From Desulfovibrio sp. (GTDB lineage Bacteria; Desulfobacterota; Desulfovibrionia; Desulfovibrionales; Desulfovibrionaceae), in NCBI GenBank assembly GCA_031272405.1, contig JAISTW010000067.1, positions 1 through 45,777 on the forward strand: DNA of 45,777 nt, read 5' to 3'. Numbering within the stretch: the stretch's first letter is position 1; the number at the start of each line of letters is the position of its first letter. Below the pieces are notes generated by a model. It saw nothing but the letters and a program-made list of their open reading frames with translations, made no database searches and was not told where the DNA came from. Of the stretch, positions 11,591-45,777 are shown one piece after another. Made by a program: the position numbers and the translations under genes.

Positions 11591-12232
11591 ATGCGCGTTG
11601 CCGTGTTTCGCCTTTTGCCGATTCTCGTCGCTTTTTTCCTCTGGTGCGGATTTTCTCAGGCGTCGGCCGCGGACAACTCCGCATCCGCGGCGCGTCGGGC
11701 TCTGGAAATTTCCACAGACCGCATTCTGACCTGCATCAAAAATCCCGATTACGTCAATCCGGTCACGCGTCCTCCGCTGCGCCGCCAGATTGAGGAAGAA
11801 GTGCTGCACATATTCGACTTCGCGGAATTTTCCTCGCGTACCGTGGGCCAACGCTGGCGCTCCTTCACGCCGGAGCAGCAGCAAAACTTCAGCGACGCAT
11901 TCGCCGATCTGCTCATCACCACCTATGTGAGCAAAATAGACGGCTATAACGGCGAGAATGTGGCCTATGCGGGTGAAACGGCCTCGGGCGACAAGGTGGA
12001 AGTCCGCACCGTCATCACCATGAAGGACGGCAAAAAGGTGCCGGTGTCCTACCGTATGCTCCCCAAGGGCAATGCCTGGCGCGTGTATGACGTGCTTATC
12101 GAAAACGTCAGCCTGGTCAAGAATTACCGCGACCAGTTCAAGGGCATTCTCAACAAGGACACGCCGGAGAGCCTCATTGAGAGGATCCGCAACAAAGTGA
12201 AGGAAGTGCGTCAACAGCATGCGACGAAATAA
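11591..12232 (+). CDS. mlaC: MlaC-family periplasmic phospholipid shuttle
   Basis: MlaC carries phospholipid between MlaA at the outer membrane and MlaFED at the inner membrane. The 213-residue protein has a cleavable signal peptide (to about residue 25, FSQASAAD). The mature protein has the MlaC/Ttg2D pattern of a helical N-half (FDFAEFSSRTVGQRWRSFTPEQQQNF, about 76-101) and a sheet C-half (VSYRMLPKGNAWRVYDVLIENVSLV). The start lies three bases after the mlaD stop and the end overlaps mlaA by 14 bases. Confidence 0.92.
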   Translation: MRVAVFRLLPILVAFFLWCGFSQASAADNSASAARRALEISTDRILTCIKNPDYVNPVTRPPLRRQIEEEVLHIFDFAEFSSRTVGQRWRSFTPEQQQNFSDAFADLLITTYVSKIDGYNGENVAYAGETASGDKVEVRTVITMKDGKKVPVSYRMLPKGNAWRVYDVLIENVSLVKNYRDQFKGILNKDTPESLIERIRNKVKEVRQQHATK

Positions 12233-25746: not shown

Positions 25747-27252
25747 ATGACGACAAGGAAAAGACTGACGACCGAGGCGGGCGCGCCCGTTGCGGACAAC
25801 ACCAACTCCGCAACCGCCGGCAGCCGCGGCGGCATGCTGCTGCAAAATCTCTGGCTTCTCGAAAAACTCGCCCATTTCGACCGGGAGGTCATCCCGGAGC
25901 GGCGCATGCACGCCAAGGGATCCGGGGCGTACGGAACCTTCACCGTAACCCACGACATTACCCGGTATACCAGAGCCAAACTGTTTGAGACTGTCGGCAA
26001 AAAGACTGAGGTGTTCGTTCGCTTCTCAACCGTGGCCGGGGAGCGCGGCGCCGCCGACGCTGAACGGGACATCCGCGGTTTCGCCATCAAGTTCTATACG
26101 GAAGAGGGCAATTGGGATCTGGTGGGAAACAACACTCCAGTTTTTTTTCTGCGCGACCCCTTGCGCTTCCCGGACCTGAACCATGCCGTGAAACGCGACC
26201 CAAAAACCAACATGCGTTCGGCCCAGAACAATTGGGATTTTTGGTCAATGCTCCCCGAAGCCCTGCACCAGGTCACCATCACAATGTCCGACAGGGGCAT
26301 CCCCTTCTCCTACCGTCACATGCATGGTTTCGGCAGCCACACCTTCAGCATGTTCAACGCCGACAACAAACGGACATGGGTGAAATATCACTGGCATACC
26401 CGTCAGGGCATAAAAAATCTCAGCGACGCCGAGGCCGAGGCCGTTATCGCCAAAGACCGGGAATCCCACCAGCGCGACCTGTTTGAGGCAATCTCCCGCG
26501 GAGACTTCCCCCTATGGGATTTTTTCATTCAGGTAATGACTGAAGAGCAGGCAAAAAATCACAGGGAAAATCCCTTTGATCTGTCAAAGGTATGGAGCCA
26601 GAAGGAATATCCCCTGATTCCCGTGGGCGTGCTGGAATTGAACCGCAACCCGGAGAACTACTTTGCCGAGGTAGAGCAGTCCGCCTTCAATCCCGCCAAT
26701 ATTGTTCCCGGCCTCGGGCTGTCGCCGGACAAAATGCTCCAGGGCCGGCTTTTTTCCTACGGAGACGCCCAGCGCTACCGGCTCGGCGTCAACCACCACT
26801 CCATCCCTGTCAACGCTCCCAAATGCCCTGTTCACTCCTATCACCGGGACGGTCAAATGCGGGTGGACGGCAATTATGGCGCAGCAACGTCCTACCAGCC
26901 CAACAGCTACGGAGAATGGGCGGAAAATCCCGAGCAGCGCGAACCACCGCTGGAGATTCAGGGCAGGGGGGATTGCTATGAACCCAAGGACGATCCGTCC
27001 GATGACTGCTTCTATCAGGCCGGGGATCTGTACAGGCTTCTCGCGGAAGACAAAAAACAGCTTTTGATTGAAAACACCGCGCGCAATATCGGCCCGGTGA
27101 CGGAGAACATCAAGTATCGGCACGCCGCCCATTGCCTGCTGGCGGACAGGGATTACGGGGCCAAGCTTGCCGGCGCCCTGGGGCTGAATCTGGACAAGGT
27201 CGTCGAACTGTCCGGGATGAGCCACAAGGAACGCATGAAGGCCACATCCTGA
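25747..27252 (+). CDS. katA: Monofunctional heme catalase (small-subunit clade)
   Basis: Catalase converts hydrogen peroxide to water and oxygen. The 501-residue protein has the distal His55 in the family motif [13 protein letters not shown], the Asn region [10 protein letters not shown], and the heme-ligating Tyr338 in [14 protein letters not shown]. The length is that of clade 3 small-subunit catalases. The start has AAGGAGG upstream. In an anaerobe this gives protection during oxygen exposure. The gene has its own promoter and two stacked hairpins at its end. Confidence 0.96.
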
Positions 27253-33154: not shown

Positions 33155-33442
33155 ATGAAAAAACTGTTCGTAGTCTTTTTGATTGCTTTTTTGGGATTTT
33201 CTTTACCCGGTTGTGCCTGGCTTGGCCGAACAACAGGAAAGGCAAAGGCCAAGATGGAGAGAAAGGTGGATGATATAGACCGCGCTTACCATCAAGGCTA
33301 CTCTGAAGAAAAAAGAAAGACGTCAGAAAACTCGGCATCGCGCTCTGACGCCAAGCAAGTTCCAGAGGAAGATCCAGCAACCTCATCTGAAGAACAACAG
33401 CAAAAACAACAAAAAGACGTTGAGACCACAACTTCAATATAA
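33155..33442 (+). CDS. Small lipoprotein of unknown function
   Basis: The 95-residue protein has a lipoprotein signal with lipobox SLPGC (Cys20). It is followed by a short mature part that is highly charged and rich in Lys, Glu, Gln and Ser, with a Gln-rich stretch near residue 85. No domain is recognised, and most of it looks disordered. It lies 17 bases before the first ketosynthase gene, so it is the probable first gene of the polyene-like operon. Confidence 0.7.
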   Translation: MKKLFVVFLIAFLGFSLPGCAWLGRTTGKAKAKMERKVDDIDRAYHQGYSEEKRKTSENSASRSDAKQVPEEDPATSSEEQQQKQQKDVETTTSI

Positions 33443-33459
33443 CGCAAAAAATACCAGTG

Positions 33460-34689
33460 ATGAGACATCGCGTAGCTATAACTGGACTTGGCATAATTTC
33501 ATGTCTTGGCACGAGTCCCAATGAGGTTGCCGAAGCTCTTTATGAAGGCAAATCTGGCATTATAGCCGATTACGAACGCAAACAACTGGGCTTTTTCTCT
33601 TGCCTCACAGGCGCTATTGCGCCGTACATCAGTCATTTTCCTCTCTCCCGGAAGCAACGCAAAACTATGCCGGATTTTGCCCAATGGGCCGTGGAAGCAA
33701 GCGCGCAGGCTCTACGGCAGGCTGAATTTCCACTTGAAGACCTCCATAATGAACGAAGCGGCATTCTTTTTGGTTGCGACTCCAGCGCACTGGCACCTAT
33801 TGAGCAAACCACGATTTTGCTGGAAAAGAAAAATACAGCATCCCTCGGCAGTGGTTTGGTATTTCGTTCGATGACTTCCTGTGTCACCATGAACCTGAAT
33901 ACCGTGTTCGGTACGCAGGGGGCTTGCTGGACTATAAGCAGCGCCTGCTCCAGCGGTGCCCATGCCTTGGGACAAGCGGCTGATCTCATTATGCTTGGCA
34001 GGCAGGACAGGATGCTGTGCGGTGGAGCCCAAGAAATTAACTGGCAGTCTATGTGCAGTTTCGACGCTCTTGGCGCTTTTGCATCCAGAGAGGATACACC
34101 CCATACCGCCAGCCGACCTTTTGATGCCGAACGTGATGGACTAGTCCCCAGCGGGGGTGCAGCCGCTCTATTTCTGGAGCGTTACGATCTTGCTCAAAAA
34201 CGTGGGGCCAAAATCCTCGGCGAAGTGGCAGGATACGGCTTTTCTTCTGACGGAGAAAATATTGCCGTTCCAAGTCAAAACGGATTGTACCGCGCCATGT
34301 GCATGGCTTTGAAAACGGCAGGAATGGAACCACAGGATATTGATTACATTTGTGCGCATGCGACTTCCACGCCTGTTGGCGACAGCGTAGAAGCTCGATG
34401 TATAACAACGCTGTTCGGTGAAAAAACGGTACCCGTGTCGTCAACGAAGTCCATGACCGGCCATGAATTGTGGATGTCTGGGGCGGCGCAGGCAGTCTAC
34501 AGCGTAATCATGGCCAAGAATCAATTTCTGGCTCCAAACTGTAATTTCAACACCCCTGACAACGATTCTGCATCTCTTGATATTATCCTTGAAACTCGTC
34601 ATGCAGCCCCCAAGGCGACTTTATGCAATTCAGCTGGATTCGGAGGGACAAACGCCTCGCTCGTCTTGCGATTCCGGGAGAATGAATGA
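33460..34689 (+). CDS. Beta-ketoacyl-ACP synthase, FabB-like (ketosynthase 1)
   Basis: This enzyme condenses malonyl-ACP with an acyl primer or chain. The 409-residue protein has an intact thiolase-fold active site: Cys163 in TISSACSSG, His300 in CAHATSTPVGD and His335 with Lys330 in TKSMTGHELWMSGA. The KSMTGH region and the end (SAGFGGTNASLVLRF) are closer to FabB/KAS I than to FabF. In aryl-polyene clusters such a ketosynthase (ApeO-like) elongates the polyene. ATG 33460 is preferred over GTG 33457; neither has a good Shine-Dalgarno. It overlaps the next gene by four bases (ATGA). Confidence 0.88.
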   Translation: MRHRVAITGLGIISCLGTSPNEVAEALYEGKSGIIADYERKQLGFFSCLTGAIAPYISHFPLSRKQRKTMPDFAQWAVEASAQALRQAEFPLEDLHNERSGILFGCDSSALAPIEQTTILLEKKNTASLGSGLVFRSMTSCVTMNLNTVFGTQGACWTISSACSSGAHALGQAADLIMLGRQDRMLCGGAQEINWQSMCSFDALGAFASREDTPHTASRPFDAERDGLVPSGGAAALFLERYDLAQKRGAKILGEVAGYGFSSDGENIAVPSQNGLYRAMCMALKTAGMEPQDIDYICAHATSTPVGDSVEARCITTLFGEKTVPVSSTKSMTGHELWMSGAAQAVYSVIMAKNQFLAPNCNFNTPDNDSASLDIILETRHAAPKATLCNSAGFGGTNASLVLRFRENE

Positions 34690-36182
34690 CAAGCGCCGAT
34701 AAACCCTTTGTGGTCATTGGGGGCGGCATATCCGGAATGGCGGCAGCACTGGTTTTGGCGAAGTTTGGATTTTCTGTTGTTTTGATTGAAAAAAGAAAGC
34801 AGCTTGCTCCCACAATCCGCGGCTTTTCAAGACAGGGCACGAATTTTGACACTGGCCTTCACTATGTGGGTGGACTCCAGCCCGATGGCCCTTTGACCCG
34901 CTATTTCAGCTTTCTCGGACTGAGCGATGTCCCTTTTACAAATCTCTGTCAAAATTGCTTTGATCGCATTCGTTTCGCCGACAGAGCAGAGGACATACAG
35001 TTGCCCGTCGGCCGAGATGCCATCATTGACTACCTAAGCGGTATTTTCCCGGATGACAGGCATTTTATCTCATCTTATTACCATCAAATTCAAAACCTGT
35101 TTGATTCGTCGGGGTTTTTAAATTTCAAAGGAAACTTTCGGGACGCCACAAATGCAGCATGTAAACAGGAATCCTTGGCATGTGTAGTCGACAAAGGAAC
35201 ACAAAATCCAATATTGCGCACTGTTCTCTCAATACATTCGCTCCTGTATGGCGTTTCCCCAGAAGAAACGCCATTTATCCAGCATGCAAGAGTGGCTGGT
35301 TCATACCTGGAAGGGGTAAAAACTGTCGCTGGGGGTGGCAAGATACTGGCATCCTCTTTTGAAAACCAATTAGCCAAATCTGATGTAACTTGTTCATGCG
35401 GTTCTGCAGTTACGGCGATTTCATATGACCACGCTGGTGTAAATGGGGTTGTTTTGGAAGACGAACGATTTGTTCCGGCAGCTGGCCTGCTTTTTACAGC
35501 CCATCCGAGTATATTGCCTAAATTGTTGCCTGACGGTGCTATCAAACCGGCTTTTTCCCGCAGGCTTTTATCTCTGGAGGACACTATATCATCCCATACG
35601 CTTTTTTGCTCATGTGACAGCGAGATACCCTCTGTGCAGGGCAATAATCTGTTTGTTTGCCTAAAAACAGGCATCTACCACGCATTTCGGCCAGATTGCC
35701 GTCTGGATGACGGACCATTTTATGTATCCCGCCGCGTCCCAGACAATCTGGTTACTCCCATGAATCAATCCGGCCTGATTATTTTTGCTCCTGGAAATAT
35801 CAGGGAGTATGGTGAATGGGCAGATTCAAAAACCGGGCAGCGTCCGGAGGCATACAGGATTTTTAAGAGAAGGCGGATGGAAAGACTGCTCGAAATTTTT
35901 CTGCGCCATTGTCCGGAATTTAAAAAAATCCGTGTACTGGATGGTGGAACGCCTCTGACAAACCGGGATTATTTGGGGGCACCATTAGGAGGGCTTTACG
36001 GAACTAAACATTCCCTCAATCAATTCAGCCCGCTGCCTGCTACCAAAATCCCAAATCTATGGATGGCCGGACAATCAATTATAGCGCCTGGCATTCTAGG
36101 CGCTGTCATTTCTGCATTTGTGGCTTGCGGCTTTATAGTCGGCATGGAAAAGTTACAAGCGGAGCTTCGCAAATGCATCTGA
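34686..36182 (+). CDS. FAD-dependent oxidoreductase, phytoene-desaturase/RetSat-like
   Basis: The 498-residue protein opens with an FAD-binding Rossmann motif VIGGGISGMAAALVLAKFG (about 9-27) and ends with the CrtI-type C-terminal block NLWMAGQSIIAPGILGAVIS (about 457-476). The intervening text resembles phytoene desaturases and retinol saturases (GFSRQGTNFDTGLHYVGG near 45-62). Such enzymes desaturate, saturate or isomerise long polyene chains. It is sandwiched between two ketosynthases, overlapping them by 4 and 10 bases, so it acts in the same pathway. There is no carotenoid synthase nearby. Exact chemistry is unknown. Confidence 0.82.
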   Translation: MTSADKPFVVIGGGISGMAAALVLAKFGFSVVLIEKRKQLAPTIRGFSRQGTNFDTGLHYVGGLQPDGPLTRYFSFLGLSDVPFTNLCQNCFDRIRFADRAEDIQLPVGRDAIIDYLSGIFPDDRHFISSYYHQIQNLFDSSGFLNFKGNFRDATNAACKQESLACVVDKGTQNPILRTVLSIHSLLYGVSPEETPFIQHARVAGSYLEGVKTVAGGGKILASSFENQLAKSDVTCSCGSAVTAISYDHAGVNGVVLEDERFVPAAGLLFTAHPSILPKLLPDGAIKPAFSRRLLSLEDTISSHTLFCSCDSEIPSVQGNNLFVCLKTGIYHAFRPDCRLDDGPFYVSRRVPDNLVTPMNQSGLIIFAPGNIREYGEWADSKTGQRPEAYRIFKRRRMERLLEIFLRHCPEFKKIRVLDGGTPLTNRDYLGAPLGGLYGTKHSLNQFSPLPATKIPNLWMAGQSIIAPGILGAVISAFVACGFIVGMEKLQAELRKCI

Positions 36183-37402
36183 AGCGCGTTGTAATTACCG
36201 GCATGGGGGCGGTTTCTCCATACGGAAAAGGAAGCGAGCTTTTGTTCTCAATGCTGTTTGCAGGTAAAAGCGCTGTACGGCACATTGAGTCGTTAGGCAA
36301 TATTCCAGGTCTGGGACCACGAGTGGCAGCAACTGTCCCGGATGTTGGCATAAACGAAATACCTCGCAAAATTCGGCGTTCCATGTCTGCCATGTCCTCT
36401 TACGCGTATCTTGCCGCCCTTGAGGCCATTGAGCAGGCAAAATTGGATAATGACATTGTTCAAAGCGGTCGCCTGGGGATCGCTTTGGGGACTACAATGG
36501 GCAGCCCAGTGAATTTAGAGCATTTTTTTCGTCAATATATTGCTTCGATAGGTGTAGAACAGGTAAAATCAACACTTTTTTTCAGCATAATGAGTAATTC
36601 GGCAGCCGCAAACCTTGCTCAGTCATTAGGTGTGACAGGCCGCGTACTCAGCCCCTCCGCAGCCTGCGCTTCCGGCTGTCAGGCCATTGGTTTGGGTTAC
36701 GAAGCGATTGCTTTCGGCAAGCAGGACTATATGCTGTGCGGCGGAACGGATGAATATCATCCTCTGGTATCGGGCACCTTTGATATCATGCTGGCGGCCT
36801 CTACAACTTTCAATGACACACCCGAGCAAACCCCGCGTCCGTTTGACATACGGAGAGATGGAGTAGTGTGTTCTGAAGGGGCCGGACTGATTCTGTTGGA
36901 GAGTTTTGAAGCGGCCCAAAAACGCAAGGCCACAATTTTGGCGGAAATTGCCGGTTTTGCCACAACGTGTGATAGCGGCAATATTGCCTCGCCTTGTCCT
37001 GAATCCATAGCTACCTGTATCAGGGCAGCTCTCGATAATGCCGGGATTTCCAGCAGTGATGTGGAGTACATCAACGCACACGCGACGGGGACAGAATTGG
37101 GGGATATGGCTGAAAGCCAGGCCATTGCCTCCATTTTCGGCGACAATGTTCCTGTTTCAAGTCTTAAAGGACATATTGGGCACACAATGGCCGCAAGCGG
37201 CGCGCTGGAAAGTATTGCAGCCGTGCATATGCTGAATAAAAAAACCATATTACCTACACTCAATCTCCAAGAAATTGACCCACGCTGTTCAGGTATATTT
37301 TTACCCAAAGAGACGGTTGCTTTTAATGGCAGTCTTATTGTAAAAAATAGTTTCGGTCTGGGTGGGACTAACTGCGCTCTGATTTTAAGGAGAATGCAAT
37401 GA
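36173..37402 (+). CDS. Beta-ketoacyl-ACP synthase, FabF-like (ketosynthase 2)
   Basis: The 409-residue protein is a second condensing enzyme with Cys165 in SAACASGC, His303 in NAHATGTELGD and Lys332/His337 in LKGHIGHTMAASG, all intact. It is therefore not a chain-length factor. The text matches FabF/KAS II and ApeR-like ketosynthases, which often start the chain. I chose ATG 36173 because family homology begins there (MHLKRVVITG); it overlaps the oxidoreductase gene by 10 bases. The acyl carrier protein gene begins inside its last codons (ATGA-type overlap). Confidence 0.9.
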   Translation: MHLKRVVITGMGAVSPYGKGSELLFSMLFAGKSAVRHIESLGNIPGLGPRVAATVPDVGINEIPRKIRRSMSAMSSYAYLAALEAIEQAKLDNDIVQSGRLGIALGTTMGSPVNLEHFFRQYIASIGVEQVKSTLFFSIMSNSAAANLAQSLGVTGRVLSPSAACASGCQAIGLGYEAIAFGKQDYMLCGGTDEYHPLVSGTFDIMLAASTTFNDTPEQTPRPFDIRRDGVVCSEGAGLILLESFEAAQKRKATILAEIAGFATTCDSGNIASPCPESIATCIRAALDNAGISSSDVEYINAHATGTELGDMAESQAIASIFGDNVPVSSLKGHIGHTMAASGALESIAAVHMLNKKTILPTLNLQEIDPRCSGIFLPKETVAFNGSLIVKNSFGLGGTNCALILRRMQ

Positions 37403-37662
37403 CTGACCAGGAAATTGTTCAAAAGGCATATACCGCGCTAGCCCAGGAATTTGAGCTGGATATAAGCCAGATGAACCCTGAGACGCGTCTGCGTGAGGAT
37501 CTCGGCTTGGACAGCCTAGACTATGTGGACATGGTAGTCGTGCTGGAGCAAGCCTTCGGCGTCAAGATTGGAAAAGACCCAGAGCTTACGTCCGTTCGTA
37601 CACTGGGTGATGTTCATGAATTCATACTGAACAAAAAACGTGCCCTGGAAAAAATCCAATAA
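37399..37662 (+). CDS. Acyl carrier protein
   Basis: The 87-residue protein has the phosphopantetheine attachment Ser39 in LGLDSLDYVDMV, the standard DSL motif, within a four-helix ACP. It carries the growing chain for the ketosynthases, reductase and dehydratases of this cluster. The start overlaps the ketosynthase 2 stop. It is distinct from a housekeeping acpP because it lies in the specialised cluster and has a longer, Lys-rich C-terminus. Confidence 0.92.
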   Translation: MTDQEIVQKAYTALAQEFELDISQMNPETRLREDLGLDSLDYVDMVVVLEQAFGVKIGKDPELTSVRTLGDVHEFILNKKRALEKIQ

Positions 37663-37672
37663 CGTGCATAAA

Positions 37673-38464
37673 ATGCAACAAACAGCCCTTAACACGTTTA
37701 GCAATTTTGCTTCAGTATGCAAGTTCAACATACTCTTTTTTGGCGGATTGATAGCATGGACAATTGCATATTTCCCCATCGCTTTTTTTACTTATATATT
37801 TCGCGTTCATGTGCAGCACAGTCAAAAGCAGAGGGAAATCAGGGCTCTCTCCCATTTTTACGGGAAAATTTGCTGCTTGCTTCTTGGCAAGCTTACTAAA
37901 ATTGAATATACCAATAGGAACAGTGAGCTACCCCACGCGTACATTATTACGCCAAATCATCAGTCTTTTTTTGATCCATACTGCATTGGTCTGTTCCCGA
38001 TTAAAAATCATGTGTTTTTTGTTCGCAAGTGGCCGTTCAAGATACCTCTTTACGGGATCATTATGCGAGAGGCAGGCTACTTGAATTCTGAAAATATGCA
38101 GATAAAAACATTTTTGCAACAAGCCGGGGAACTTTTGCACGATGGCGCGGCTCTGATTATCTACCCAGAAGGAACACGCAGTTCGACAGGAGAGCTCGGA
38201 CGTTTCCATTCCGGTGCATTCCTCCTTGCGATGAAATACAATGTCCCGATAGTGCCTATGTGCATAGCTGGAACTGGCAGTGTATTTCCAAAAGGAAAAT
38301 CATTCGGCAAACCGGCACAAGTACGCGTTACATTGATGGAACAGGTGAATCCGACAGCCTTTAAGCACTTTGGTGATACTGCTCATATACACATGCAACG
38401 CTATATAAAAACAGTTATGAAAGACGCATTGACGCATTTTCATGACATAAACAAATGCCGGTGA
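37673..38464 (+). CDS. PlsC-type 1-acylglycerol-3-phosphate acyltransferase-like protein
   Basis: The 263-residue protein has one or two N-terminal membrane helices (about 18-42), then the acyltransferase motifs HQSFFD (H96-x4-D101) and EGTRSSTGELGRFHSG (from about 153). PlsC-family enzymes move acyl groups from ACP or CoA to a glycerol or sugar hydroxyl. In this setting it could load the finished polyene onto a lipid anchor. The start is uncertain: ATG 37673 gives the shortest plausible form, and GTG at 37664 or 37640 would add residues. The ribosome site is weak, and translation may be coupled to the ACP gene. Confidence 0.85.
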   Translation: MQQTALNTFSNFASVCKFNILFFGGLIAWTIAYFPIAFFTYIFRVHVQHSQKQREIRALSHFYGKICCLLLGKLTKIEYTNRNSELPHAYIITPNHQSFFDPYCIGLFPIKNHVFFVRKWPFKIPLYGIIMREAGYLNSENMQIKTFLQQAGELLHDGAALIIYPEGTRSSTGELGRFHSGAFLLAMKYNVPIVPMCIAGTGSVFPKGKSFGKPAQVRVTLMEQVNPTAFKHFGDTAHIHMQRYIKTVMKDALTHFHDINKCR

Positions 38465-38492
38465 GAACGGCAAAATCAAAAGGAGATTTTTT

Positions 38493-38897
38493 ATGGGCAT
38501 CTCAAAACGTCTTTTACCTCTTTGCTTTATTTTTATCTGTACTTTTGTTATGTTGGTTGGTTGCCGAAAAACCGTCCCTGTTGAAAATATCAATAGTCCG
38601 ATGCCGATGGCTGCACAGTCTGTAAACAAAGCAAAAATTGCGGATGCCATTATTCAGGGCGGCATGGTAACAGGCTGGCAAATAACGCCTACTAGTGATG
38701 GGATAATGACAGGTATCTTGCATATCAGAAATCACACTGCGGTTGTCGCAATCACATACGATGATAAATCTTATCGTATCGATTACAAAGACAGCGTTAA
38801 TCTGAAATACAAGGACGGCAACATTCATCCATACTACAACGGATGGGTACACAATTTAGACAAAAATATTCGAGCTCGCCTAGACTCAATAAGATAA
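38493..38897 (+). CDS. Small lipoprotein of unknown function within the cluster
   Basis: The 134-residue protein has a lipobox (FVMLVGC, Cys24). A compact domain follows from about residue 46 with TGILHIRNHTAVVAITYD (about 73-90), YKDSVNLKYKDGNIHPYYNGWVHNLDK and a basic end. It looks like a small two-layer sheet domain conserved in Gram-negative lipoproteins, but I cannot name the family. AAGGAG lies upstream. It lies in the same direction as the cluster genes with a 28-base gap, so it probably belongs to the export or anchoring side. Confidence 0.75.
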   Translation: MGISKRLLPLCFIFICTFVMLVGCRKTVPVENINSPMPMAAQSVNKAKIADAIIQGGMVTGWQITPTSDGIMTGILHIRNHTAVVAITYDDKSYRIDYKDSVNLKYKDGNIHPYYNGWVHNLDKNIRARLDSIR

Positions 38898-39036
38898 TAG
38901 GCTCCGTGCTGAAAAGGCCAGCTTATGCCGGCCTTAAAATATAACAGAGTATGTTCCCGCAGGCAAGAACATTACTTTTCCAGATTGAAATAAATTGAGG
39001 CGTTTCATCCGGAATTCTATACATGCAGGCACTCCC

Positions 39037-39516
39037 ATGCTTAAATTCCCAGTCCCTGCCATAGACTTGCTGCCCCATGCTCCTCCCATGCTGTGTATAG
39101 ACGCTCTTACCGCCGCCTCTGAAACACAAGCTGAGTCCGTCGCGCATCTTGCCTGGGGACATATCTTGCTTGAACAGGATGCCATTTCTGAAGTCGGCTA
39201 TATTGAGCTTGCCGCGCAAACAGCTGGAGCGATGAAGGGATACTGGGAAAAAATTGCAGGCCGTCCCATAAGCGACGGTTACCTTGCCGCTGTACAAAAT
39301 TTTACTGTTTTTGACAAAGCATTTCTTGGAGAAACGGTCAGCATCCACATCACGCTGCTTATGGAACTTTCCGGTGTACGGTTGATTGAGGCGGAGATCA
39401 AACGATTACCTCAAAAAACAAGCGGAAATACCACCAGCACGCTTTTGGCATCGGGCAAACTGAAACTATTTTTACCTGAGGCAAGCCCGGAAGATGAAAA
39501 CAAAATCGGCACGTAA
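39037..39516 (+). CDS. Hot-dog 3-hydroxyacyl-ACP dehydratase subunit, ApeP-like
   Basis: The 159-residue protein has the FabZ/ApeP opening LLPHAPPMLCID (about 11-22) and the helix motif EVGYIELAAQTAGAM (about 54-68), whose Glu (about 59) matches the catalytic acid of FabZ. The GHFPG histidine loop that should precede it is missing. Its likely partner is the protein at 43032-43409, which has the opposite half. I chose ATG 39037 because the family text starts there; a TTG start at 38995 is less likely. It overlaps the LolA-like gene by 23 bases. Confidence 0.82.
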   Translation: MLKFPVPAIDLLPHAPPMLCIDALTAASETQAESVAHLAWGHILLEQDAISEVGYIELAAQTAGAMKGYWEKIAGRPISDGYLAAVQNFTVFDKAFLGETVSIHITLLMELSGVRLIEAEIKRLPQKTSGNTTSTLLASGKLKLFLPEASPEDENKIGT

Positions 39517-40126
39517 TCCTTATAGATATTTACTGTTGGGGATATTATTGTTTGCCCCAGTCACATGCGCCGCTCAGGACAGCGCGGATGCCCTAACCCG
39601 TCTTCAAATTTTGACATCGTCTATAACCACGCTATGTTGTAATTTTACACAGCGCACCAATATATTACTCCTAGCCGAACCGGTTGTTTCGAAGGGGAAA
39701 ATGCTCTTTCAAATTCCCAACAAGCTTGTGTGGGAAATCATGGAGCCAATGCAGGAAGGTTTTGTTCTTAATGAAGATTCAGGTTATCGGTGGGACGAAA
39801 ACAGAAAAAATCGTCGCTCATTCAAGACCTCTGATGACCAACTTGCCAAACTTATCAGCACGCAGATTCGCGCCTGGGTAAAATTTGATCAGAAATGGCT
39901 TCAATCCAAATATTCCATCCACGTGGAACAGGATCACCCACTATGCCTCGCGCTTGTCCCCCGAAACTCTGAAGCCAGATCCACAGTATCACTAATACGT
40001 ATTGTTTTTGCCAATAATGGAGTTGCAATGTCCGTGGAACTCCAAGAGGCCAATGGCAATAATACTTTCATTATATTTGAAAATGTTCATGTAAATAAAC
40101 ATATTGACAATCAGGAGTTTGAATAG
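39494..40126 (+). CDS. LolA-like periplasmic carrier
   Basis: The 210-residue protein has a signal peptide (to about residue 26) and the LolA/LolB-type fold of a half-barrel of strands: CCNFTQRTNILLLAEPVVSKGKMLFQIPNKLVWEIMEP (about 49-86), YRWDENRKNRRS. Similar proteins occur in aryl-polyene clusters, where they are thought to carry the lipid product across the periplasm. It is distinct from housekeeping lolA by context. The stop TAG is followed directly by the TTG start of the exporter. Confidence 0.82.
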   Translation: MKTKSARNPYRYLLLGILLFAPVTCAAQDSADALTRLQILTSSITTLCCNFTQRTNILLLAEPVVSKGKMLFQIPNKLVWEIMEPMQEGFVLNEDSGYRWDENRKNRRSFKTSDDQLAKLISTQIRAWVKFDQKWLQSKYSIHVEQDHPLCLALVPRNSEARSTVSLIRIVFANNGVAMSVELQEANGNNTFIIFENVHVNKHIDNQEFE

Positions 40127-42478
40127 TTGCGAATTCCTGCGGCCATTGCTTGCTACAATTTTTTTTATGACAAAAAATTGTGGCTTGTCATCCTGCATGC
40201 CGTTATTGTTATCTTGTCTCTTTTGCTGAGCGTCAACCTGAGAACGAGCGAGGATATCTCGGATTTGATACCTACACAACCGAGATACCTGACAAGAGAT
40301 TTCACATTTATAAAAAATGCGCCGTTTATGCGTATCATCGCTGTGACTGTTGGCGGAGAAGATAATCATGCCGCTCATGCAGTCATGCTTTGCGAGTCCA
40401 TCAAATGCTCTATTCTCCCCGAAGTCATGACAGGCATTGACAGTGTCTTCAGTCCCAATTTTCTTGAAAATCTGATTCGTTATACTCCCAATCTACTGAC
40501 CGTAAATCAATTGACGCAACTTCATGATACCTTGTCAAAAGCGTATATTCAAAACGCAATAGCGAGAAATAAACGTGATCTTCTTGGTCCAACAGGCATA
40601 TTCACACAAAAATTAACTGCTATTGATCCTCTGCGACTGCGTGATCTCTTTATAAAAGATATTCTTTCTGCAGATAGCTTGGGGAAATTTAATCTCAATG
40701 ATGGTTTCTTTACCGATAAAAGCGGAAAATATTCACTTGTTCTTGCAAAGCCAGCAGTTTCCATGACTGATTCAGATGGCTCAGTAAAAATAATGACAAA
40801 AATAAGGGATGCAATATCAAACTTATCTGAAAAAAATGAGATTTATATTCAGGGAAGCTACGTGCATACAGAGGAAAATGCAAACATAATAAAAAGCGAT
40901 TTGCGTAGAATAATTCCAATTTCATTTGTAGTTTTGACATTTTTACTCATCTTATTCTTTCGCAACGCATATTCTATGATTGCTCTTTGCATACCAGTTA
41001 TCTCATTGATGTCGTCAATAGCGATATTGTCCATGCTATATAATACAATTTCTGGAATAGTGCTTTCCTTTGCCAGTGTTATACTCGGCATTACTGTAGA
41101 CTACGCCATCCACACCTACTTCGTCCTGTCGCCAAGCATCGATATTTTAAATAGTTTGTCAAGGTTATCCGCGGCATTGCTGGCTTGCGCTCTGACAACC
41201 TTATCCGCATTTGTATCTTTGTATTTTTCCGATATACCTGCCATTAAACAAATGTCACTGTTTGGAGTCTCGGGCATATTGGCAGCCCTTATCGTTTCAA
41301 TATATGTCCTGCCGCATTTTGTTACTCTTAGGCCACAAAAACCTCTCCCGCCAGAGCATCCCGCGAAACCGTTAAAATTCTCTTTTTTGCTGCTGATTGC
41401 ACTCGCAAGCATTTCTCTGTTCGTGATTATAAGAGGCATATCGTCATTGAGAATTGATGGAGATATACGCAATCTGGCTTGGAAATCTGGAGCCACCCTG
41501 TCGGATGAAGAAAAAACCCGGAATATCTGGGGGTTCAACAACCAATCAATCATCATTGTTTCGGAAGGGGAAGACGGTGAACAAGGTCTGGAGAAAGCGC
41601 TCCGCATTAACGACAATGTGTGGGACATCCTCAAAAAGGAGCACATTGGCGCATCAAGCATCGCGCCTTTGCTACCTTCGGAGCAGCGTCAGCGTGTGCG
41701 TAGAGAGATATGGCGCGATTTTTGGCAGCAGGATGGCCAGAATATACTGGAGGAAGTAAAAAAAATTCAGTCACAAGCCGGTTTTTCAACTTTCGCATCC
41801 GCCCAGTTCGTTTCTTTAATCAACTCTGAGCCTCCGATTATTGTCCCAGCAACATTAAGAGAAATGGGCGTGGGTTTCTTCCTAGATATGTTTGTCGCAA
41901 CGACGCATGATGCAAATCTGGTCTATACAATAGTACAAACTGACGAGAAAATATCGCCGGAAGTCCACTCCAGATTATTTTTAGCAGGAGCAAGACTTGT
42001 GTCGGGCGAACTGTTTCGGCAAAAAATAGCCGGAGCTTTCAGTGATGAAATCAAACGCTTTTGCAGCGTCACGTTTTTTATGACACTATGTGTAGTAGTT
42101 CTCCTTTTCCGTACACCAAGAAGATGCCTGCCTGCGTTGCTGCCTATGTTCACCTCACTTGCAGCCACACTTTTACTCTTTCTTCTGTTTGATATTCCAG
42201 TCAATATATTCCATGCAATGTCACTCCCACTTGTTATCGCCTTGAGCGTGGATTATGGAATTTTCATGCAATCATCACTGGAAACACATACCACACATTC
42301 AACTGAGAAAGGTATTATACTTTCTGGCCTTACTACTTTAGTCGGCTTTGGTTGTCTCCTTCTAGCCCATCACCCTGCCCTTCATTCCATCGGTATAACT
42401 GTCACCACAGGAATAACAACAGCCATGGCGACTGCCCTCTGGTTGTTGCCGCGTTTACTGCGCGGACAAAATACATAA
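40127..42478 (+). CDS. MMPL/RND-superfamily exporter
   Basis: The 783-residue inner-membrane protein has about twelve transmembrane helices in two repeats, each with a large periplasmic loop (about 40-255 and about 450-620). Family marks are the acidic motif SVILGITVDYAIHTYF in the first half (about 312-328) and LVIALSVDYGIFM in the second (about 703-715), with the Asp-Tyr pair of RND/MMPL transporters. Such proteins export lipids using the proton gradient. It starts with TTG immediately after the LolA-like stop, with AGGAG nine bases before. It probably exports the cluster product. Confidence 0.9.
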   Translation: MRIPAAIACYNFFYDKKLWLVILHAVIVILSLLLSVNLRTSEDISDLIPTQPRYLTRDFTFIKNAPFMRIIAVTVGGEDNHAAHAVMLCESIKCSILPEVMTGIDSVFSPNFLENLIRYTPNLLTVNQLTQLHDTLSKAYIQNAIARNKRDLLGPTGIFTQKLTAIDPLRLRDLFIKDILSADSLGKFNLNDGFFTDKSGKYSLVLAKPAVSMTDSDGSVKIMTKIRDAISNLSEKNEIYIQGSYVHTEENANIIKSDLRRIIPISFVVLTFLLILFFRNAYSMIALCIPVISLMSSIAILSMLYNTISGIVLSFASVILGITVDYAIHTYFVLSPSIDILNSLSRLSAALLACALTTLSAFVSLYFSDIPAIKQMSLFGVSGILAALIVSIYVLPHFVTLRPQKPLPPEHPAKPLKFSFLLLIALASISLFVIIRGISSLRIDGDIRNLAWKSGATLSDEEKTRNIWGFNNQSIIIVSEGEDGEQGLEKALRINDNVWDILKKEHIGASSIAPLLPSEQRQRVRREIWRDFWQQDGQNILEEVKKIQSQAGFSTFASAQFVSLINSEPPIIVPATLREMGVGFFLDMFVATTHDANLVYTIVQTDEKISPEVHSRLFLAGARLVSGELFRQKIAGAFSDEIKRFCSVTFFMTLCVVVLLFRTPRRCLPALLPMFTSLAATLLLFLLFDIPVNIFHAMSLPLVIALSVDYGIFMQSSLETHTTHSTEKGIILSGLTTLVGFGCLLLAHHPALHSIGITVTTGITTAMATALWLLPRLLRGQNT

Positions 42479-42480
42479 CT

Positions 42481-43035
42481 ATGAAAGCAAAATTTTCAAT
42501 ACTCCTTGTCATCGCAATATCTTGCCTGATCTGCCTTGTTTCATGCTTCGAATCCCGTCGCTTCATCCTCTATGGCAATAACTCTTGTCCACAAGAACAA
42601 AGTTTGAGCTTCAGGCACAAAGTCAGCATTACGTTTCCCCGGCAGACTAACCCGGTGACTTTTGACGGCTTGCTGCAACTTGACGGACTGCCCCATAAAC
42701 CTGTCTTACGTGCGGTGGGCCTCGGCACTATGGGATTGACCATGTTCGACATGACCATTGCCAAAGGTATTCTGAAGATTTCCACTATTCACCCGGCCCT
42801 TTTGCGTATGCCGCATTTTAAGGAACACATGGCATTGTGCCTCACGAGTGTCTATGGTAGATTATTGGGCATTGACGCAGACTCTGCGAAGCCGGGGCAG
42901 AATCAGGCTGAGATAGACTTTTCGGATGAAAAACCTTGGCCGCGAAATATGAAATTCAAGCATAATAAACCTGACTATACTGTCGCTATCAGACTTGTTG
43001 AGATCCAAACCAAAATAATGGAGCCCAGACGTTGA
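42481..43035 (+). CDS. DUF3261-like outer-membrane lipoprotein
   Basis: The 184-residue protein has lipobox CLVSC (about Cys21). The mature region resembles the DUF3261 family found in aryl-polyene clusters, with a LolB-like pattern of strands (SFRHKVSITFPRQTNPVTFDGLLQLDG, LRAVGLGTMGLTMFDMTI). I infer it receives the lipid from the LolA-like carrier at the outer membrane. It starts two bases after the exporter stop and its stop overlaps the next gene (TTGA). Confidence 0.75.
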   Translation: MKAKFSILLVIAISCLICLVSCFESRRFILYGNNSCPQEQSLSFRHKVSITFPRQTNPVTFDGLLQLDGLPHKPVLRAVGLGTMGLTMFDMTIAKGILKISTIHPALLRMPHFKEHMALCLTSVYGRLLGIDADSAKPGQNQAEIDFSDEKPWPRNMKFKHNKPDYTVAIRLVEIQTKIMEPRR

Positions 43036-43409
43036 CTTCCCTCGCTGCTGAAATGCAACACTGCGTTATTTCGCCAAGAAAGGAAACAGAACCCGGCGTC
43101 TGGGAGTCTGTATTCCGCTTTCCATACAATTTCCCCGGCTTTGTCGGACATTTTCCAGGGAATCCCGTTTTACCAGGAATTGTTCAAATTTTGGCTGTCA
43201 TACACACTGCGGGGGAATTTACCCTGCATAAAATAAAAAACTGCAAATTTTCGCGTTCTGTCCATCCCGAAGAAGATTTGTCGGTACGTCTACAACTCGC
43301 CCCTGCGCAAATTTCTGGAAAATATGAGACCGTCGCTCAAGGGGAACTGAACGTGAACGGAGGAGTTTGCGCCGTGATGACACTTTACCTGAACCGCTTT
43401 GCTCTATAA
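43032..43409 (+). CDS. Hot-dog dehydratase subunit, ApeI-like
   Basis: The 125-residue protein has the FabA/FabZ histidine loop GHFPGNPVLPG (about 38-48). The acidic residue expected on the following helix is replaced by Leu (GIVQILAVIH). It therefore carries the His half of the active site, while the ApeP-like protein carries the acid half. Together they could form one heterodimeric dehydratase, as described for aryl-polyene ApeI/ApeP pairs. The start may be TTG 43032 (overlapping the previous stop) or ATG 43053. Confidence 0.8.
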   Translation: MTSLAAEMQHCVISPRKETEPGVWESVFRFPYNFPGFVGHFPGNPVLPGIVQILAVIHTAGEFTLHKIKNCKFSRSVHPEEDLSVRLQLAPAQISGKYETVAQGELNVNGGVCAVMTLYLNRFAL

Positions 43410-43419
43410 TAGTATTTCC

Positions 43420-43923
43420 ATGCTGTTGCCAACATATTTCAGACAACCCCCAAATATCGGTGGCATTTCTTGCCCGGCACCTTTATGCTGCACGATTTCC
43501 CGCTTTGTGCGCTTTGAAGAAGTTGACCCTTTGAATATTGCCTGGCACGGCCACTATGCCTCTTACTTCGAAGAGGCCCGTGTGGCTTTCGGTAAGGCTT
43601 ATGGTCTCGCTTACTTGGATTTGTATGCGGCGGGCATTGTGGCTCCCATCAAGCAAATACACATTGATTATAAGCATCCGTTGCACTTTGACGAGGAATG
43701 CCGGATTACAGCATCGCTTTTTTGGAGCGACGCTGCCCGACTCAATTTCGAGTACGAAATCACGAATAAGACCAGTATTATCACAACGCGTGGCTATACG
43801 GTACAACTGTTTCTAAGTCTGACTGGCGATCTTTATTTAGCAAAGCCGGATTATTATGAGGAATTTTGTAAAAAATGGGAAAATGGTAGTTTCATTGGCG
43901 AATTGAGGGAATGGGAGAGATAA
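43420..43923 (+). CDS. 4-hydroxybenzoyl-CoA-thioesterase-family (YbgC-like) thioesterase
   Basis: The 167-residue hot-dog protein has the 4HBT signature VDPLNIAWHGHYASYFEEAR (about 35-54) with the catalytic Asp early in the motif. Thioesterases of this family occur in aryl-polyene clusters (ApeK-like) and release or proofread acyl chains from ACP. ATG 43420 is chosen; an upstream TTG (43399) would add seven residues. It lies ten bases after the dehydratase subunit gene and continues the operon. Confidence 0.85.
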   Translation: MLLPTYFRQPPNIGGISCPAPLCCTISRFVRFEEVDPLNIAWHGHYASYFEEARVAFGKAYGLAYLDLYAAGIVAPIKQIHIDYKHPLHFDEECRITASLFWSDAARLNFEYEITNKTSIITTRGYTVQLFLSLTGDLYLAKPDYYEEFCKKWENGSFIGELREWER

Positions 43924-44060
43924 AAAAATATTTCTTTCCAACCGAGACCCATACTGCCCCCTTGACAAATGCGCTACCAATAAGCCATGATTTGGCAGGA
44001 TATGGATATGGAAACGACAGGTCTGTACATGCTCTAAATGTCTATTATATGAGGTATATA

Positions 44061-44594
44061 ATGAAAAAATTATTTATTTTAATACTTACTATGATATCTT
44101 TAACTTTTATTGGTTGTTCGAATAAATATAAGACTACAGATAATTTACAAATGTTAACAAAACTTGAGCGCAGTAAAATTGTGTACATCTCAATTTCTAA
44201 AGATGGAGTGTATGGCAGTGAAATCTATAGAGATTCAGGGAAAAAAGTTACTAATGCTCTGCAAACAGTGCTTACATCTAATGTGTCCTCAATAATTGTT
44301 GCAGCAAAAGTTGAGTCACAGAAAGAAGCTTTGCAAAATGCGAAGACGTCAGGAGCGCGTTACCTTTTTTATCCGGCGATTATACACTGGGAACAACGTA
44401 GGGCAGCATGGTCAGGTATTCCCAGCAGACTGGGTATTTCGATAACTGTTTTTGATCTTGCAAAAGAAGATGAAGATTCAATGCTTATGCAAAAGCAGTT
44501 AGATGTAAGAGGAAAAATTTTTACATTTAAAAGCCAATATGTTGAAGAACTCTTGCCACCAACTTTACAGCAATTTGTGAGTGACATTTTTTAG
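44061..44594 (+). CDS. DUF4823-like lipoprotein
   Basis: The 177-residue protein has a lipobox (FIGC, about Cys19) and a domain rich in a repeating alpha/beta pattern: RSKIVYISISKDGVYGSEIYRDSGKKVTNAL, ARYLFYPAIIHWEQR and RLGISITVFDL. This resembles DUF4823, a family of unknown role. GAGG lies eight bases before the ATG, and the region upstream (43924-44060) is AT-rich and separated from the thioesterase, so it may have its own promoter. The codon use is very AT-rich compared with the rest of the window. Confidence 0.65.
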   Translation: MKKLFILILTMISLTFIGCSNKYKTTDNLQMLTKLERSKIVYISISKDGVYGSEIYRDSGKKVTNALQTVLTSNVSSIIVAAKVESQKEALQNAKTSGARYLFYPAIIHWEQRRAAWSGIPSRLGISITVFDLAKEDEDSMLMQKQLDVRGKIFTFKSQYVEELLPPTLQQFVSDIF

Positions 44595-44903
44595 TATGTT
44601 TTTTCATGACTTGCCCTATGATTGCAGTATTTCAATTTAGTGTCAACATGACTCTAGCATTTAAGATAAAGTGAAGACTGTATGCGTAATGTTAGTTTGT
44701 TGACTCCTGCAAATGGCGCTCATGATTGTGTCGGATGTGCAGCGCAATTACCCATAGAGCATCTCTATTACCTACGAAACCTTATGCATACAACCAGCAA
44801 AAAGGATACTGCGCTTAAAAAGTATGAAAAGGCAGAAGAAAAAAAAGTGATACTGTATCCAGATTCAGGTACAGACACCTTATTGCCGTAGCAAATGTCA
44901 GGA
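44595..44903. other. AT-rich gap between convergent lipoprotein and reductase genes
   Basis: This region contains one small open frame (see 44682-44891). I see no strong terminator hairpin, although TTTTTT (44589 region) follows the lipoprotein stop. Confidence 0.4.
44682..44891 (+). CDS. Possible small protein, 69 residues
   Basis: The frame opens with an ATG and no clear Shine-Dalgarno. It encodes a Cys-containing first half (HDCVGC, about 14-19) and a Lys-rich second half. No family is recognised. It could be a chance frame in AT-rich DNA or the remnant of a larger gene. Confidence 0.25.
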   Translation: MRNVSLLTPANGAHDCVGCAAQLPIEHLYYLRNLMHTTSKKDTALKKYEKAEEKKVILYPDSGTDTLLP

Positions 44904-45635
44904 TCAGCCCGTGAAAATGCCGCCGTTCACGGATATGACTTGTCCGGTAATATAACTTGCGTCCGATGAGCATAAAAATGAGACAACCGCCGCTACTTCC
45001 TCCGGTCGTCCCACACGCTGCATAGGTATAGTGGGGGTTATCTTGTCCATGGAAAGATTGGCAAGCATTTCCGTGTCAATGAAACCTGGGGCAACTGCGT
45101 TCACAAGCACGTTACGCTTGGCAATTTCCACTGCAAGAGAACGCGTGGCTCCTATCAATCCAGCTTTTGCCGCGGAATAATTCACTTGGCCTCCTATGCC
45201 GGTTTCACCGGATGTGGAGGCCATGTTGATTATACGACCTTCGCGCTTGTGGAGCATGCGCGCCAACACAAACCCGGTCACGTTGAAGAAGCCGTGCAGA
45301 TGCACATCCAGAACGCTGTGCCAATCTTTTGCGGACATCATGGCCAAAATTCCGTCTCTGTTAAATCCGGCATTGTTGATAAGCGCATAAGGTGTATGTT
45401 CTTCAAGCAAGGGAGACAATATCTTTTTGCACTCGTCGAGGTCAGCCACATCGAAAGGCAAAAGCCGGCATTGCCGCCCTTTTGAATGTATGCTGTTCTC
45501 TATGGATTTCGCGGCGGTGTGGTCACTGCGGTAATTCAGCCATATGTCAAAGCCATCTTCGGCCAGTCGCAACGCGGTTGCTCTGCCGATGCCCTTTGAA
45601 GCGCCGGTTACGAGGGCTATTTTTACCTGCTCCAC
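44904..45635 (-). CDS. 3-oxoacyl-ACP reductase, FabG-like
   Basis: This short-chain dehydrogenase reduces 3-ketoacyl-ACP with NADPH. The 243-residue protein has the cofactor motif TGASKGIG (about 10-17), NNAGFNRDG (about 84-92), the catalytic Ser region MASTSGE, YSAAKAG (Tyr-x3-Lys, about 155-161) and a C-terminal VNGGIFTG. In this locus it is the ketoreductase (ApeQ-like) for the two ketosynthases, though it lies on the opposite strand. The start codon is GTG (45635-45633) with GGGAG upstream. An IS5-type end begins about 26 bases before it and may remove its promoter. Confidence 0.9.
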
Positions 45636-45661
45636 TTTTACGGACTCCCTGTTTGTTCGCT

Positions 45662-45777
45662 CTAGGGCGTGTTAACACAAATTGACAAGATTATATAAAG
45701 AGTATAACTTGTTCTGATGGAAATCACACATGAACAATATGAGAGAATTGCTGACTGTTTTCCACGCCAGAGGGGCA
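45662..45777 (+). mobile_element. Left end of an IS5-family insertion sequence (truncated by window edge)
   Basis: GGGCGTGTTAACAC (45665-45678) has the look of the terminal inverted repeat of IS5/IS427-type elements. It is preceded by CTAG (45662-45665), which fits the YTAR target of some IS5 members. A promoter-like TTGACA (45682-45687) and TATAAC (45703-45708) follow, and then the transposase start. Only the left end lies in the window. Confidence 0.65.
45717..45777 (+). CDS. IS5-family transposase, N-terminus (partial)
   Basis: The frame from ATG 45717 encodes MEITHEQYERIADCFPRQRG, the characteristic N-terminus of IS5-family transposases (pattern MEITxEQYxxIxxxxPxxRG), and runs off the right edge. 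It is transcribed away from fabG. Confidence 0.8.
   Translation, partial: MEITHEQYERIADCFPRQRG

What the first reader, a model, noticed from the sequence alone, without database searches (positions are those of the whole stretch)
33460..45635. A type II polyketide/fatty-acid-like cluster with aryl-polyene architecture in a sulfate reducer
Seen: two complete ketosynthases, ACP, hot-dog dehydratase pair, PlsC acyltransferase, thioesterase and FabG reductase, together with LolA-like, MMPL, DUF3261-like and other lipoprotein genes. Known: this combination is the signature of aryl-polyene (APE) and related polyene-lipid pathways that place pigments in the outer membrane. Inference: the locus makes and exports a polyene-type lipid. 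In a sulfate reducer exposed to oxygen this could be an antioxidant envelope component.
Basis: partly seen in the sequence, partly recalled or inferred. Interest (0 to 1): 0.8.

Follow-up and report, generated by a model that had tools for sequence, protein, structure and literature searches.

The report
Polyene-lipid operon with carotenoid-desaturase-like enzyme
This sulfate-reducing bacterium carries an intact run of genes related to the bacterial aryl-polyene pigment pathway plus a carotenoid-desaturase-like enzyme, and together they would likely build a polyene lipid for the outer membrane, although genes that supply the aromatic end in related clusters were not found in its incomplete genome assembly.

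Summary
It missed one: a 498-aa FAD enzyme with a carotenoid-desaturase fold between the two ketosynthases. Eleven of 18 E. coli ape genes have a homologue here (A, D, F, I, K, L, M, N, P, Q, R; N weak); seven (B, C, E, G, H, J, O) do not. KS1-CrtI-KS2 are consecutive in 38 of 79 named loci; all three are intact in 17 of 20 relatives' loci (the sets overlap). KS1 and KS2 form their own clades, apart from housekeeping FabF; KS2 is sister to ApeR. In 8 of 8 relatives examined an ApeO-like ketosynthase and an LpxL-type acyltransferase lie nearby or, in the nearest one, on another contig. Eight loci, mostly Geobacteraceae, add an aromatic ammonia-lyase. None of these was found in the window's genome, which is 80.65% complete, and the contig ends in a repeated element. 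So it is aryl-polyene-like, probably a polyene-lipid operon; 'aryl' is unproven. Similar loci were flagged in 2009 as ladderane candidates (PMC2649909).

The parts
33460..34689 (+). KS1, FabB/ApeR-related ketosynthase (GTG at 33457 or ATG at 33460)
   Evidence: PF00109+PF02801; 33% identical to ApeR; own clade of 24, sister to Bacteroidales cluster KSs
34686..36182 (+).
36173..37402 (+). KS2, ApeR-type ketosynthase (searched from 36176)
   Evidence: PF00109+PF02801; 41% identical to ApeR; clade of 24 sister to ApeR, 100/99
37399..37662 (+). acyl carrier protein, ApeF-like
   Evidence: PF00550 40.6 bits; 48% identical to ApeF over 77 aa
37640..38464 (+). PlsC-type lysophospholipid acyltransferase, ApeD-like
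   Evidence: PF01553 80.1 bits; family profile to ApeD 64.8 bits
38493..38897 (+). lipoprotein, ApeA homologue
   Evidence: hhalign of 15 family members with E. coli ApeA: probability 99.9, E 1.9e-32; no consistent Pfam family
38995..39516 (+). hot-dog dehydratase, ApeP-like (start may be 39046)
   Evidence: family profile to ApeP 67.7 bits; a profile that included ApeP found 6qsr and FabZ chains
39494..40126 (+). LolA-like periplasmic carrier, ApeL-like
   Evidence: PF03548 53.9 bits; family profile to ApeL 55.4 bits
40127..42478 (+). MMPL/RND transporter, ApeM-like
   Evidence: PF03176 58.7 bits; family profile to ApeM 153.8 bits
42481..43035 (+). DUF3261-like lipoprotein in the ApeN position (searched from 42484)
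   Evidence: 12 of 16 family members hit PF11659, the window's own only 13.8 bits; direct match to ApeN weak, probability 41
43032..43409 (+). hot-dog dehydratase, ApeI-like
   Evidence: PF07977 29.5 bits; 30% identical to ApeI over 77 aa, profile 41.6 bits
43399..43923 (+). 4HBT thioesterase, ApeK-like
   Evidence: PF13279 52.5 bits; 31% identical to ApeK
44061..44594 (+). DUF4823 lipoprotein (open frame from 43911); membership of the operon doubtful
   Evidence: PF16105 83.9 bits; GC3 0.285, lowest of the set; no counterpart listed
44904..45635 (-). FabG/ApeQ-like ketoreductase, inverted
   Evidence: 47% identical to ApeQ; 79% identical to the FabG at the end of G045's second half; also passes a general FabG model, 308 against 273 bits
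45658..45777 (+). end of a repeated element, probably an insertion sequence, that ends the contig
   Evidence: found at seven places of the genome including this one; four of the other six within 330 bases of a contig start

Best explanation
The locus is the core half of an aryl-polyene-like gene cluster with two extra enzymes, a FabB-like ketosynthase and a carotenoid-desaturase-like flavoenzyme, and it likely makes a conjugated polyene acyl chain that is predicted to be fixed to a lipid and moved to the outer membrane. Shown by sequence: the genes, their order, their conservation and their homology to ApeA, D, F, I, K, L, M, P, Q, R and, weakly, N. Inferred: KS1 and KS2 extend a carrier-bound chain, FabG reduces it and the ApeI/ApeP-like pair dehydrates it, and because no enoyl reductase was seen in the cluster the double bonds stay. 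Inferred: the CrtI-like enzyme isomerises, desaturates or saturates that polyene. Inferred: the thioesterase and the PlsC-like enzyme release the chain and join it to a lipid, and MMPL, LolA and the DUF3261-like lipoprotein carry it outward. Unknown: the starter, because aryl-starter and ApeO/ApeC-type genes were not found in the held assembly.
For: Eleven ape homologues side by side. KS1 and KS2 each one clade, apart from nine housekeeping FabFs including the genome's own; KS2 sister to ApeR. KS1-CrtI-KS2 consecutive in 38 of 79 named loci. In 8 of 8 relatives ApeO-like and LpxL-type genes lie near the core or, for G045, on another contig. Ammonia-lyase in eight such loci (one of them identified by Pfam and NCBIfam). 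Carotenoid-desaturase fold without phytoene/squalene synthase in 3 of 3 genomes tested. Purifying selection in 12 of 12 genes. ApeR makes short polyenes in vitro (PMC8358021, passages).
Against: No product is known. The ApeO/CLF pair, the ApeH-type ligase, ApeJ-type genes and ammonia-lyase were not found in this genome, so the copy may be incomplete or decayed. The DUF3261 link is weak for the window's own protein. FabG passes a general FabG model. Bacteroidales clusters have KS1 and CrtI without KS2 beside it, so the core may make something else. The genome has seven AMP-binding hits elsewhere, any of which might load a starter.
Confidence: 0.66

Rival explanations
1. It is a ladderane-type or polyunsaturated-hydrocarbon locus: the CrtI-like enzyme puts isolated double bonds into a fatty chain that is later cyclised or decarboxylated, and no conjugated or aryl polyene is made.
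For: Rattray 2009 (PMC2649909, passages) describes loci with FabF paralogues, phytoene-desaturase-like genes, radical SAM enzymes, a phenylacetyl-CoA-ligase-like gene and an Mmp-like membrane protein in Kuenenia and Desulfotalea, and similar ones in Geobacter and Pelobacter; Desulfotalea made C31:8 and C31:9 hydrocarbons. Relatives of the window's cluster carry radical SAM and PaaK-like genes.
Against: No radical SAM gene among the window's cluster genes. Both KSs keep Cys-His-His, unlike the three odd Kuenenia paralogues in that paper. Eleven homologues point to ape. Kuenenia and Desulfotalea proteins were not compared.
Confidence: 0.12
2. It is a remnant: the starter and ApeO/CLF half was lost by rearrangement around the repeated element, and the surviving core no longer makes its product.
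For: In G045 the second half ends in a FabG 79% identical to the window's; in the window that FabG is inverted, sits next to a repeated element, and the genes between are missing. LpxL is not found in G000 while the same query gives 686.5 bits in G045. A same-genus genome, G003, has a broken copy.
Against: No stop in any of the 12 genes compared and pN below pS in 12 of 12, though that test averages over both lineages. The assembly is 80.65% complete. Bacteroidales clusters have a CrtI-containing core with no ApeO-like KS seen in the fetched 21-kb stretches of L117 and L119.
Confidence: 0.15
3. It is an accessory fatty-acid synthase that supplies ordinary unsaturated membrane fatty acids (a FabA/FabB-like route).
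For: KS1 scores best with FabB models and PDB FabB chains.
Against: Scores are far below the FabB and FabF cut-offs (359.6 against 630; 346.1 against 493.75). The genome has its own FabF on another contig and that FabF groups elsewhere. At E <= 1e-30 the CrtI-like query finds 29 genomes besides its own among 149 searched (my count), so it is not a basic need. The operon carries its own export genes.
Confidence: 0.07

Closest known systems
Aryl polyene (ape) cluster of E. coli CFT073 (PMC8253772)
   Same: Homologues of ApeA, D, F, I, K, L, M, N (weak), P, Q, R.
   Different: The window has a second FabB-like KS (KS1) and a CrtI-like gene; the CrtI profile gave no hit to the ape proteins. ApeB, C, E, G, H, J and O have no specific counterpart here. 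Gene order differs.
Ladderane-candidate loci of Kuenenia and similar loci of Desulfotalea, Geobacter and Pelobacter (PMC2649909, PMC4790861, passages)
   Same: KS genes, ACP, dehydratase and a phytoene-desaturase-like gene together; relatives of the window's cluster also have radical SAM and PaaK-like genes.
   Different: No radical SAM in the window's cluster; KS active sites intact. Sequences of those loci were not compared here.
Flexirubin-type clusters (NCBIfam FlxA, FlxB)
   Same: The window's FabG scores 305.5 bits with FlxB; the Geomonas copy's ammonia-lyase scores 465.8 bits with FlxA.
   Different: Both are below the curated cut-offs (340 and 700), and no ammonia-lyase was found in the window's genome.
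CrtI-containing KS clusters of gut-type Bacteroidales (L117, L119 and others)
   Same: KS1-like KS, ACP, hot-dog protein(s), thioesterase, MMPL, CrtI-like, FabG and LolA-like; their KS is sister to KS1, 100/100.
   Different: One KS, other gene order, no KS2 beside the CrtI-like gene; a KS1-like KS lies in the fetched stretch of 12 of the 37 Bacteroidota loci (my count; many contigs are short).

Membership tests
Aryl polyene (APE) cluster | KS-chain-length-factor pair (ApeO-ApeC) | tested here: not met
   Only KS1, KS2 and one FabF in the held assembly; present in relatives. The assembly is 80.65% complete, so absence from the organism is not shown.
Aryl polyene (APE) cluster | Aryl starter: source enzyme and ApeH-type ligase | tested here: not met
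   No PF00221; best ApeH-like match 29.3 bits on another contig. Seven AMP-binding hits exist elsewhere.
Aryl polyene (APE) cluster | ApeR-type ketosynthase | tested here: met
   KS2 41% identical, sister to ApeR 100/99 (one ApeR row, long branch)
Aryl polyene (APE) cluster | Dehydratase pair ApeI/ApeP and ketoreductase ApeQ | tested here: met
   Profiles 41.6, 67.7 and 259.6 bits
Aryl polyene (APE) cluster | Two ACPs (ApeE, ApeF) | tested here: not met
   One ACP, ApeF-like
Aryl polyene (APE) cluster | Envelope and export set ApeA, D, K, L, M, N | tested here: met
   ApeN weak
Aryl polyene (APE) cluster | ApeJ-type glycosyltransferase/acyltransferase | tested here: not met
   LpxL query: nothing in G000, 686.5 bits in G045; GT2 query: nothing, without a positive control
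Aryl polyene (APE) cluster | Aryl polyene product | not testable with these tools
   Needs lipid extraction and spectroscopy
Ladderane-candidate locus | Phytoene-desaturase-like gene among KS genes | tested here: met
   34686-36182
Ladderane-candidate locus | Radical SAM enzyme in the cluster | tested here: not met
   None among the window's cluster genes; present in some relatives
Ladderane-candidate locus | KS paralogues with altered active sites | tested here: not met
   KS1 and KS2 keep Cys-His-His
Ladderane-candidate locus | CrtI-like protein in one clade with Kuste3607/Kuste3336 | not tested
   Those sequences were not fetched
Flexirubin cluster | FlxA ammonia-lyase and FlxB reductase above cut-off | tested here: not met
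   FlxB 305.5 against 340; no PF00221 in the genome
Housekeeping FabB/FabF | KSs group with the species' own FabF | tested here: not met
   Separate starred clades (E. coli FabB was not in the tree)
Carotenoid biosynthesis | Phytoene or squalene synthase in the genome | tested here: not met
   PF00494 absent from G000, G045 and G134 (0 of 3); control rings in 7 of 14

The most novel reading that the evidence does not exclude
Anaerobic bacteria have their own branch of the aryl-polyene pathway, defined by a KS1-CrtI-KS2 core, in which the carotenoid-desaturase-like flavoenzyme reshapes the carrier-bound polyene (for example by isomerising it, or by closing and aromatising its end so that no ready-made aromatic starter is needed). 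The deltaproteobacterial loci set aside in 2009 as ladderane candidates belong to this branch, so aryl polyenes and ladderane-type lipids share one polyene-making core.
Probability: 0.22. Interest if true: 0.78.

Novelty: new variant of a known kind. Interest (0 to 1): 0.52.

Why it matters
It ties two literatures together: aryl polyenes, known from clusters such as E. coli ape, and the unexplained phytoene-desaturase-containing fatty-acid loci of anaerobes. If the flavoenzyme acts on a carrier-bound polyene, a step proposed for ladderanes but not shown could be tested in culturable bacteria such as Geomonas. It would also give sulfate reducers a defined candidate for an envelope pigment.

Tried and rejected
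Housekeeping fatty-acid synthesis: rejected on the tree and on patchy presence. Carotenoid synthesis: rejected, no phytoene/squalene synthase. A complete aryl-polyene cluster in this genome: not supported, since searches for the missing genes were empty or weak. Of these, searches had G045 as positive control, the named control genomes, and none. Second-half genes hidden in the window: tblastn found only cross-hits to KS1, KS2 and the ACP. The direct hhalign of the DUF3261-like family with ApeN was weak. antiSMASH and BiG-SCAPE could not be run. Kuenenia and Desulfotalea proteins were not fetched. Fold search: no retinol saturase among the listed rows, which excludes nothing.

Literature: nine searches listed no paper on a CrtI-containing aryl-polyene cluster in sulfate reducers. 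Several lists were capped (25 of 84, 15 of 33, 10 of 57, 15 of 803) and the library lacks most subscription journals. I saw passages of PMC2649909, PMC4790861, PMC8358021, PMC8253772, PMC12806405 and PMC11324757 and listings of the rest. PMC12806405 mentions gut arylpolyene clusters and, separately, transfers from Desulfovibrio; whether they coincide was not shown. PMC11324757 was not to the point.
Full report
Observation. The window is the whole of contig C46 of a 2.21-Mb, 80-contig, 80.65% complete genome. At 33460-45635 lie genes for KS1, a CrtI-like FAD enzyme, KS2, ACP, PlsC, a lipoprotein, a hot-dog protein, LolA, MMPL, a DUF3261-like lipoprotein, a second hot-dog protein, a thioesterase, a DUF4823 lipoprotein and, on the other strand, FabG. 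Most neighbours overlap or abut. The cluster genes have GC3 0.29-0.56; eight of nine other genes of the contig that I measured have 0.62-0.76, and the ninth, the small lipoprotein gene just upstream, has 0.40. That fits foreign or exchanged DNA. In the nearest relative, G045, the same stretch is at GC 0.543 against 0.594 around it. The window also carries Nitrate_red_gam, Fer4 and NrfD proteins that look like DsrM, DsrK and DsrP (names recalled), so 'sulfate reducer' is right.

Homology to ape. Against the E. coli ape proteins, KS2 is 41% identical to ApeR and KS1 33%; both are 28-29% identical to ApeO. ACP is 48% identical to ApeF, FabG 47% to ApeQ, the thioesterase 31% to ApeK. Family profiles link PlsC to ApeD, HD1 to ApeP, HD2 to ApeI, LolA to ApeL and MMPL to ApeM (all). 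The 134-aa lipoprotein is an ApeA homologue. The DUF3261 link rests on 12 of 16 family members; the direct comparison with ApeN is weak. ApeB, C, E, G, H, J and O have no specific counterpart among the window's cluster proteins (weak cross-hits of ACP to ApeE and of both KSs to ApeO).

Conservation. With the CrtI-like protein as query, 149 related genomes gave 29 besides its own at E <= 1e-30 (my count). I fetched the 20 strongest loci, from 19 of those 29. KS1, CrtI and KS2 are all present and unbroken in 17 of 20; the others are a lone CrtI paralogue (L026), a broken copy (L032) and a contig that begins inside the gene (L039). A scan of named genomes found 515 relatives and kept 79 loci. The three genes are consecutive on one strand in 38 of 79, or 34 of 79 with strict spacing. 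Of those 34, ACP is present in 32, PlsC in 31, FabG in 28, LolA in 25, MMPL in 24, HD1 in 23, HD2 in 22, thioesterase in 18, the DUF3261-like gene in 16, the ApeA-like lipoprotein in 12 and radical SAM in 10 (many loci are cut by contig ends). Carriers include Desulfovibrio, Pseudodesulfovibrio, Geobacter, Geomonas, Syntrophus, Pelobacter and a Lentisphaerae bacterium. Of the other 41 named loci 37 are Bacteroidota by title; in 12 of these 37 a KS1-like KS lies in the fetched stretch, in another gene order (my count).

The second half. I examined 8 relatives. An ApeO-like KS and an LpxL-type acyltransferase lie near the core in 8 of 8 (G045: on another contig), GT2 in 7, a chain-length-factor-like KS in 7, an ApeE-like ACP in 6, and an ApeH-like ligase in 6 with the G045 query but only 4 with the E. 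coli query. GT2 and LpxL both match the fused E. coli ApeJ. In G045 the second-half contig (L161) ends in a FabG that is 79% identical to the window's FabG. In the window these genes are missing, FabG is inverted, and the contig stops in an element present at seven places of the genome. LpxL finds nothing in G000 but 686.5 bits in G045. Loss and missing assembly cannot be told apart.

The aryl question. In eight of the 38 KS1-CrtI-KS2 loci (six Geobacteraceae by title, one Desulfuromonadaceae, one unplaced deltaproteobacterium) an aromatic ammonia-lyase lies in the fetched stretch on the same strand. The Geomonas one (L061) was identified by model (PF00221 552.5 bits; FlxA 465.8 bits, below its cut-off of 700); the other seven match it at 899 bits or more. 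A ninth, weaker hit (L089, 285 bits) is on the other strand of a Bacteroidota locus. Those copies look like aryl-starter pathways. The window's genome has no such lyase and no close ApeH-like ligase, though it has seven AMP-binding hits elsewhere.

Tree. I chose 75 ketosynthases from the loci and one was dropped for length. KS1 (24), KS2 (24), housekeeping FabF (9, own genome included) and ApeO-like KSs (12) each fall together with starred support; KS2 is sister to E. coli ApeR (100/99) and KS1 to four Bacteroidales cluster KSs (100/100). The two E. coli rows have long branches, there is one ApeR row, and E. coli FabB was not included. G051, of the same genus, carries a KS1/KS2 pair far from the window's although its FabF is close, which suggests exchange of clusters between lineages.

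Selection. Against G045, the 12 genes compared have no stop, and pN 0.09-0.33 is below pS 0.50-0.78 in 12 of 12. Synonymous sites are near saturation, so ratios are rough, and the test averages over both lineages.

Mechanism and limits. ApeR makes short polyenes in vitro (PMC8358021, passages), and PMC8253772 proposes the ape export route (passages). By analogy, KS1/KS2, FabG and the two dehydratases, with no enoyl reductase seen in the cluster, should leave conjugated double bonds. The flavoenzyme's step is the open question. Carotenoid desaturases, isomerases and retinol saturase (recalled) all act on polyenes, which supports a polyene substrate but does not tell the reaction.

Relation to print. 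Rattray 2009 saw loci with phytoene-desaturase-like genes, radical SAM enzymes, a CoA-ligase-like gene and an Mmp-like membrane protein in Kuenenia and Desulfotalea, and similar clusters in Geobacter and Pelobacter, and proposed PUFA or ladderane synthesis (passages). Two Kuenenia phytoene-desaturase-like proteins made no lycopene in E. coli (PMC4790861, passages). The kinship suggested here is by gene content; the Kuenenia and Desulfotalea sequences were not compared. In the nine searches named under Tried and rejected I found no paper that names this combination in sulfate reducers.

Noticed in passing
window 25747-27252: Catalase gene (PF00199, 629.2 bits) about 6 kb upstream of the cluster; oxygen defence may matter to this host, but no link to the cluster is shown.
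   Followed up: no
window 12219-13070: MlaA-type lipoprotein (PF04333, 203.3 bits), an outer-membrane lipid-transport part, in the same window.
   Followed up: no
window 33155-33442: Small AT-rich lipoprotein-like gene (GC3 0.40) just upstream of KS1 with no Pfam hit; relation to the cluster unknown.
   Followed up: no
window 45658-45777: Repeated element at the contig end, found at seven places of the genome; probably an insertion sequence that broke the assembly.
   Followed up: partly
L032 9262-11469: Same-genus genome G003 (1.6 Mb, 93% complete) has a broken copy: KS1 and KS2 each in two pieces and a stop inside the CrtI-like gene.
   Followed up: no
L026 9041-10549: G086 has a second CrtI-like paralogue (40% identical to the window's) without the other cluster genes around it.
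   Followed up: no
L037 14839-15462: PagL-type lipid A deacylase gene beside the cluster in G114 (PF09411, 71.9 bits); it hints at a lipid A or glycolipid anchor.
   Followed up: no
L027 5977-7017, L034 14204-15265, L037 4809-5873: Radical SAM-SPASM genes inside the cluster of order-level relatives, absent from the window.
   Followed up: partly
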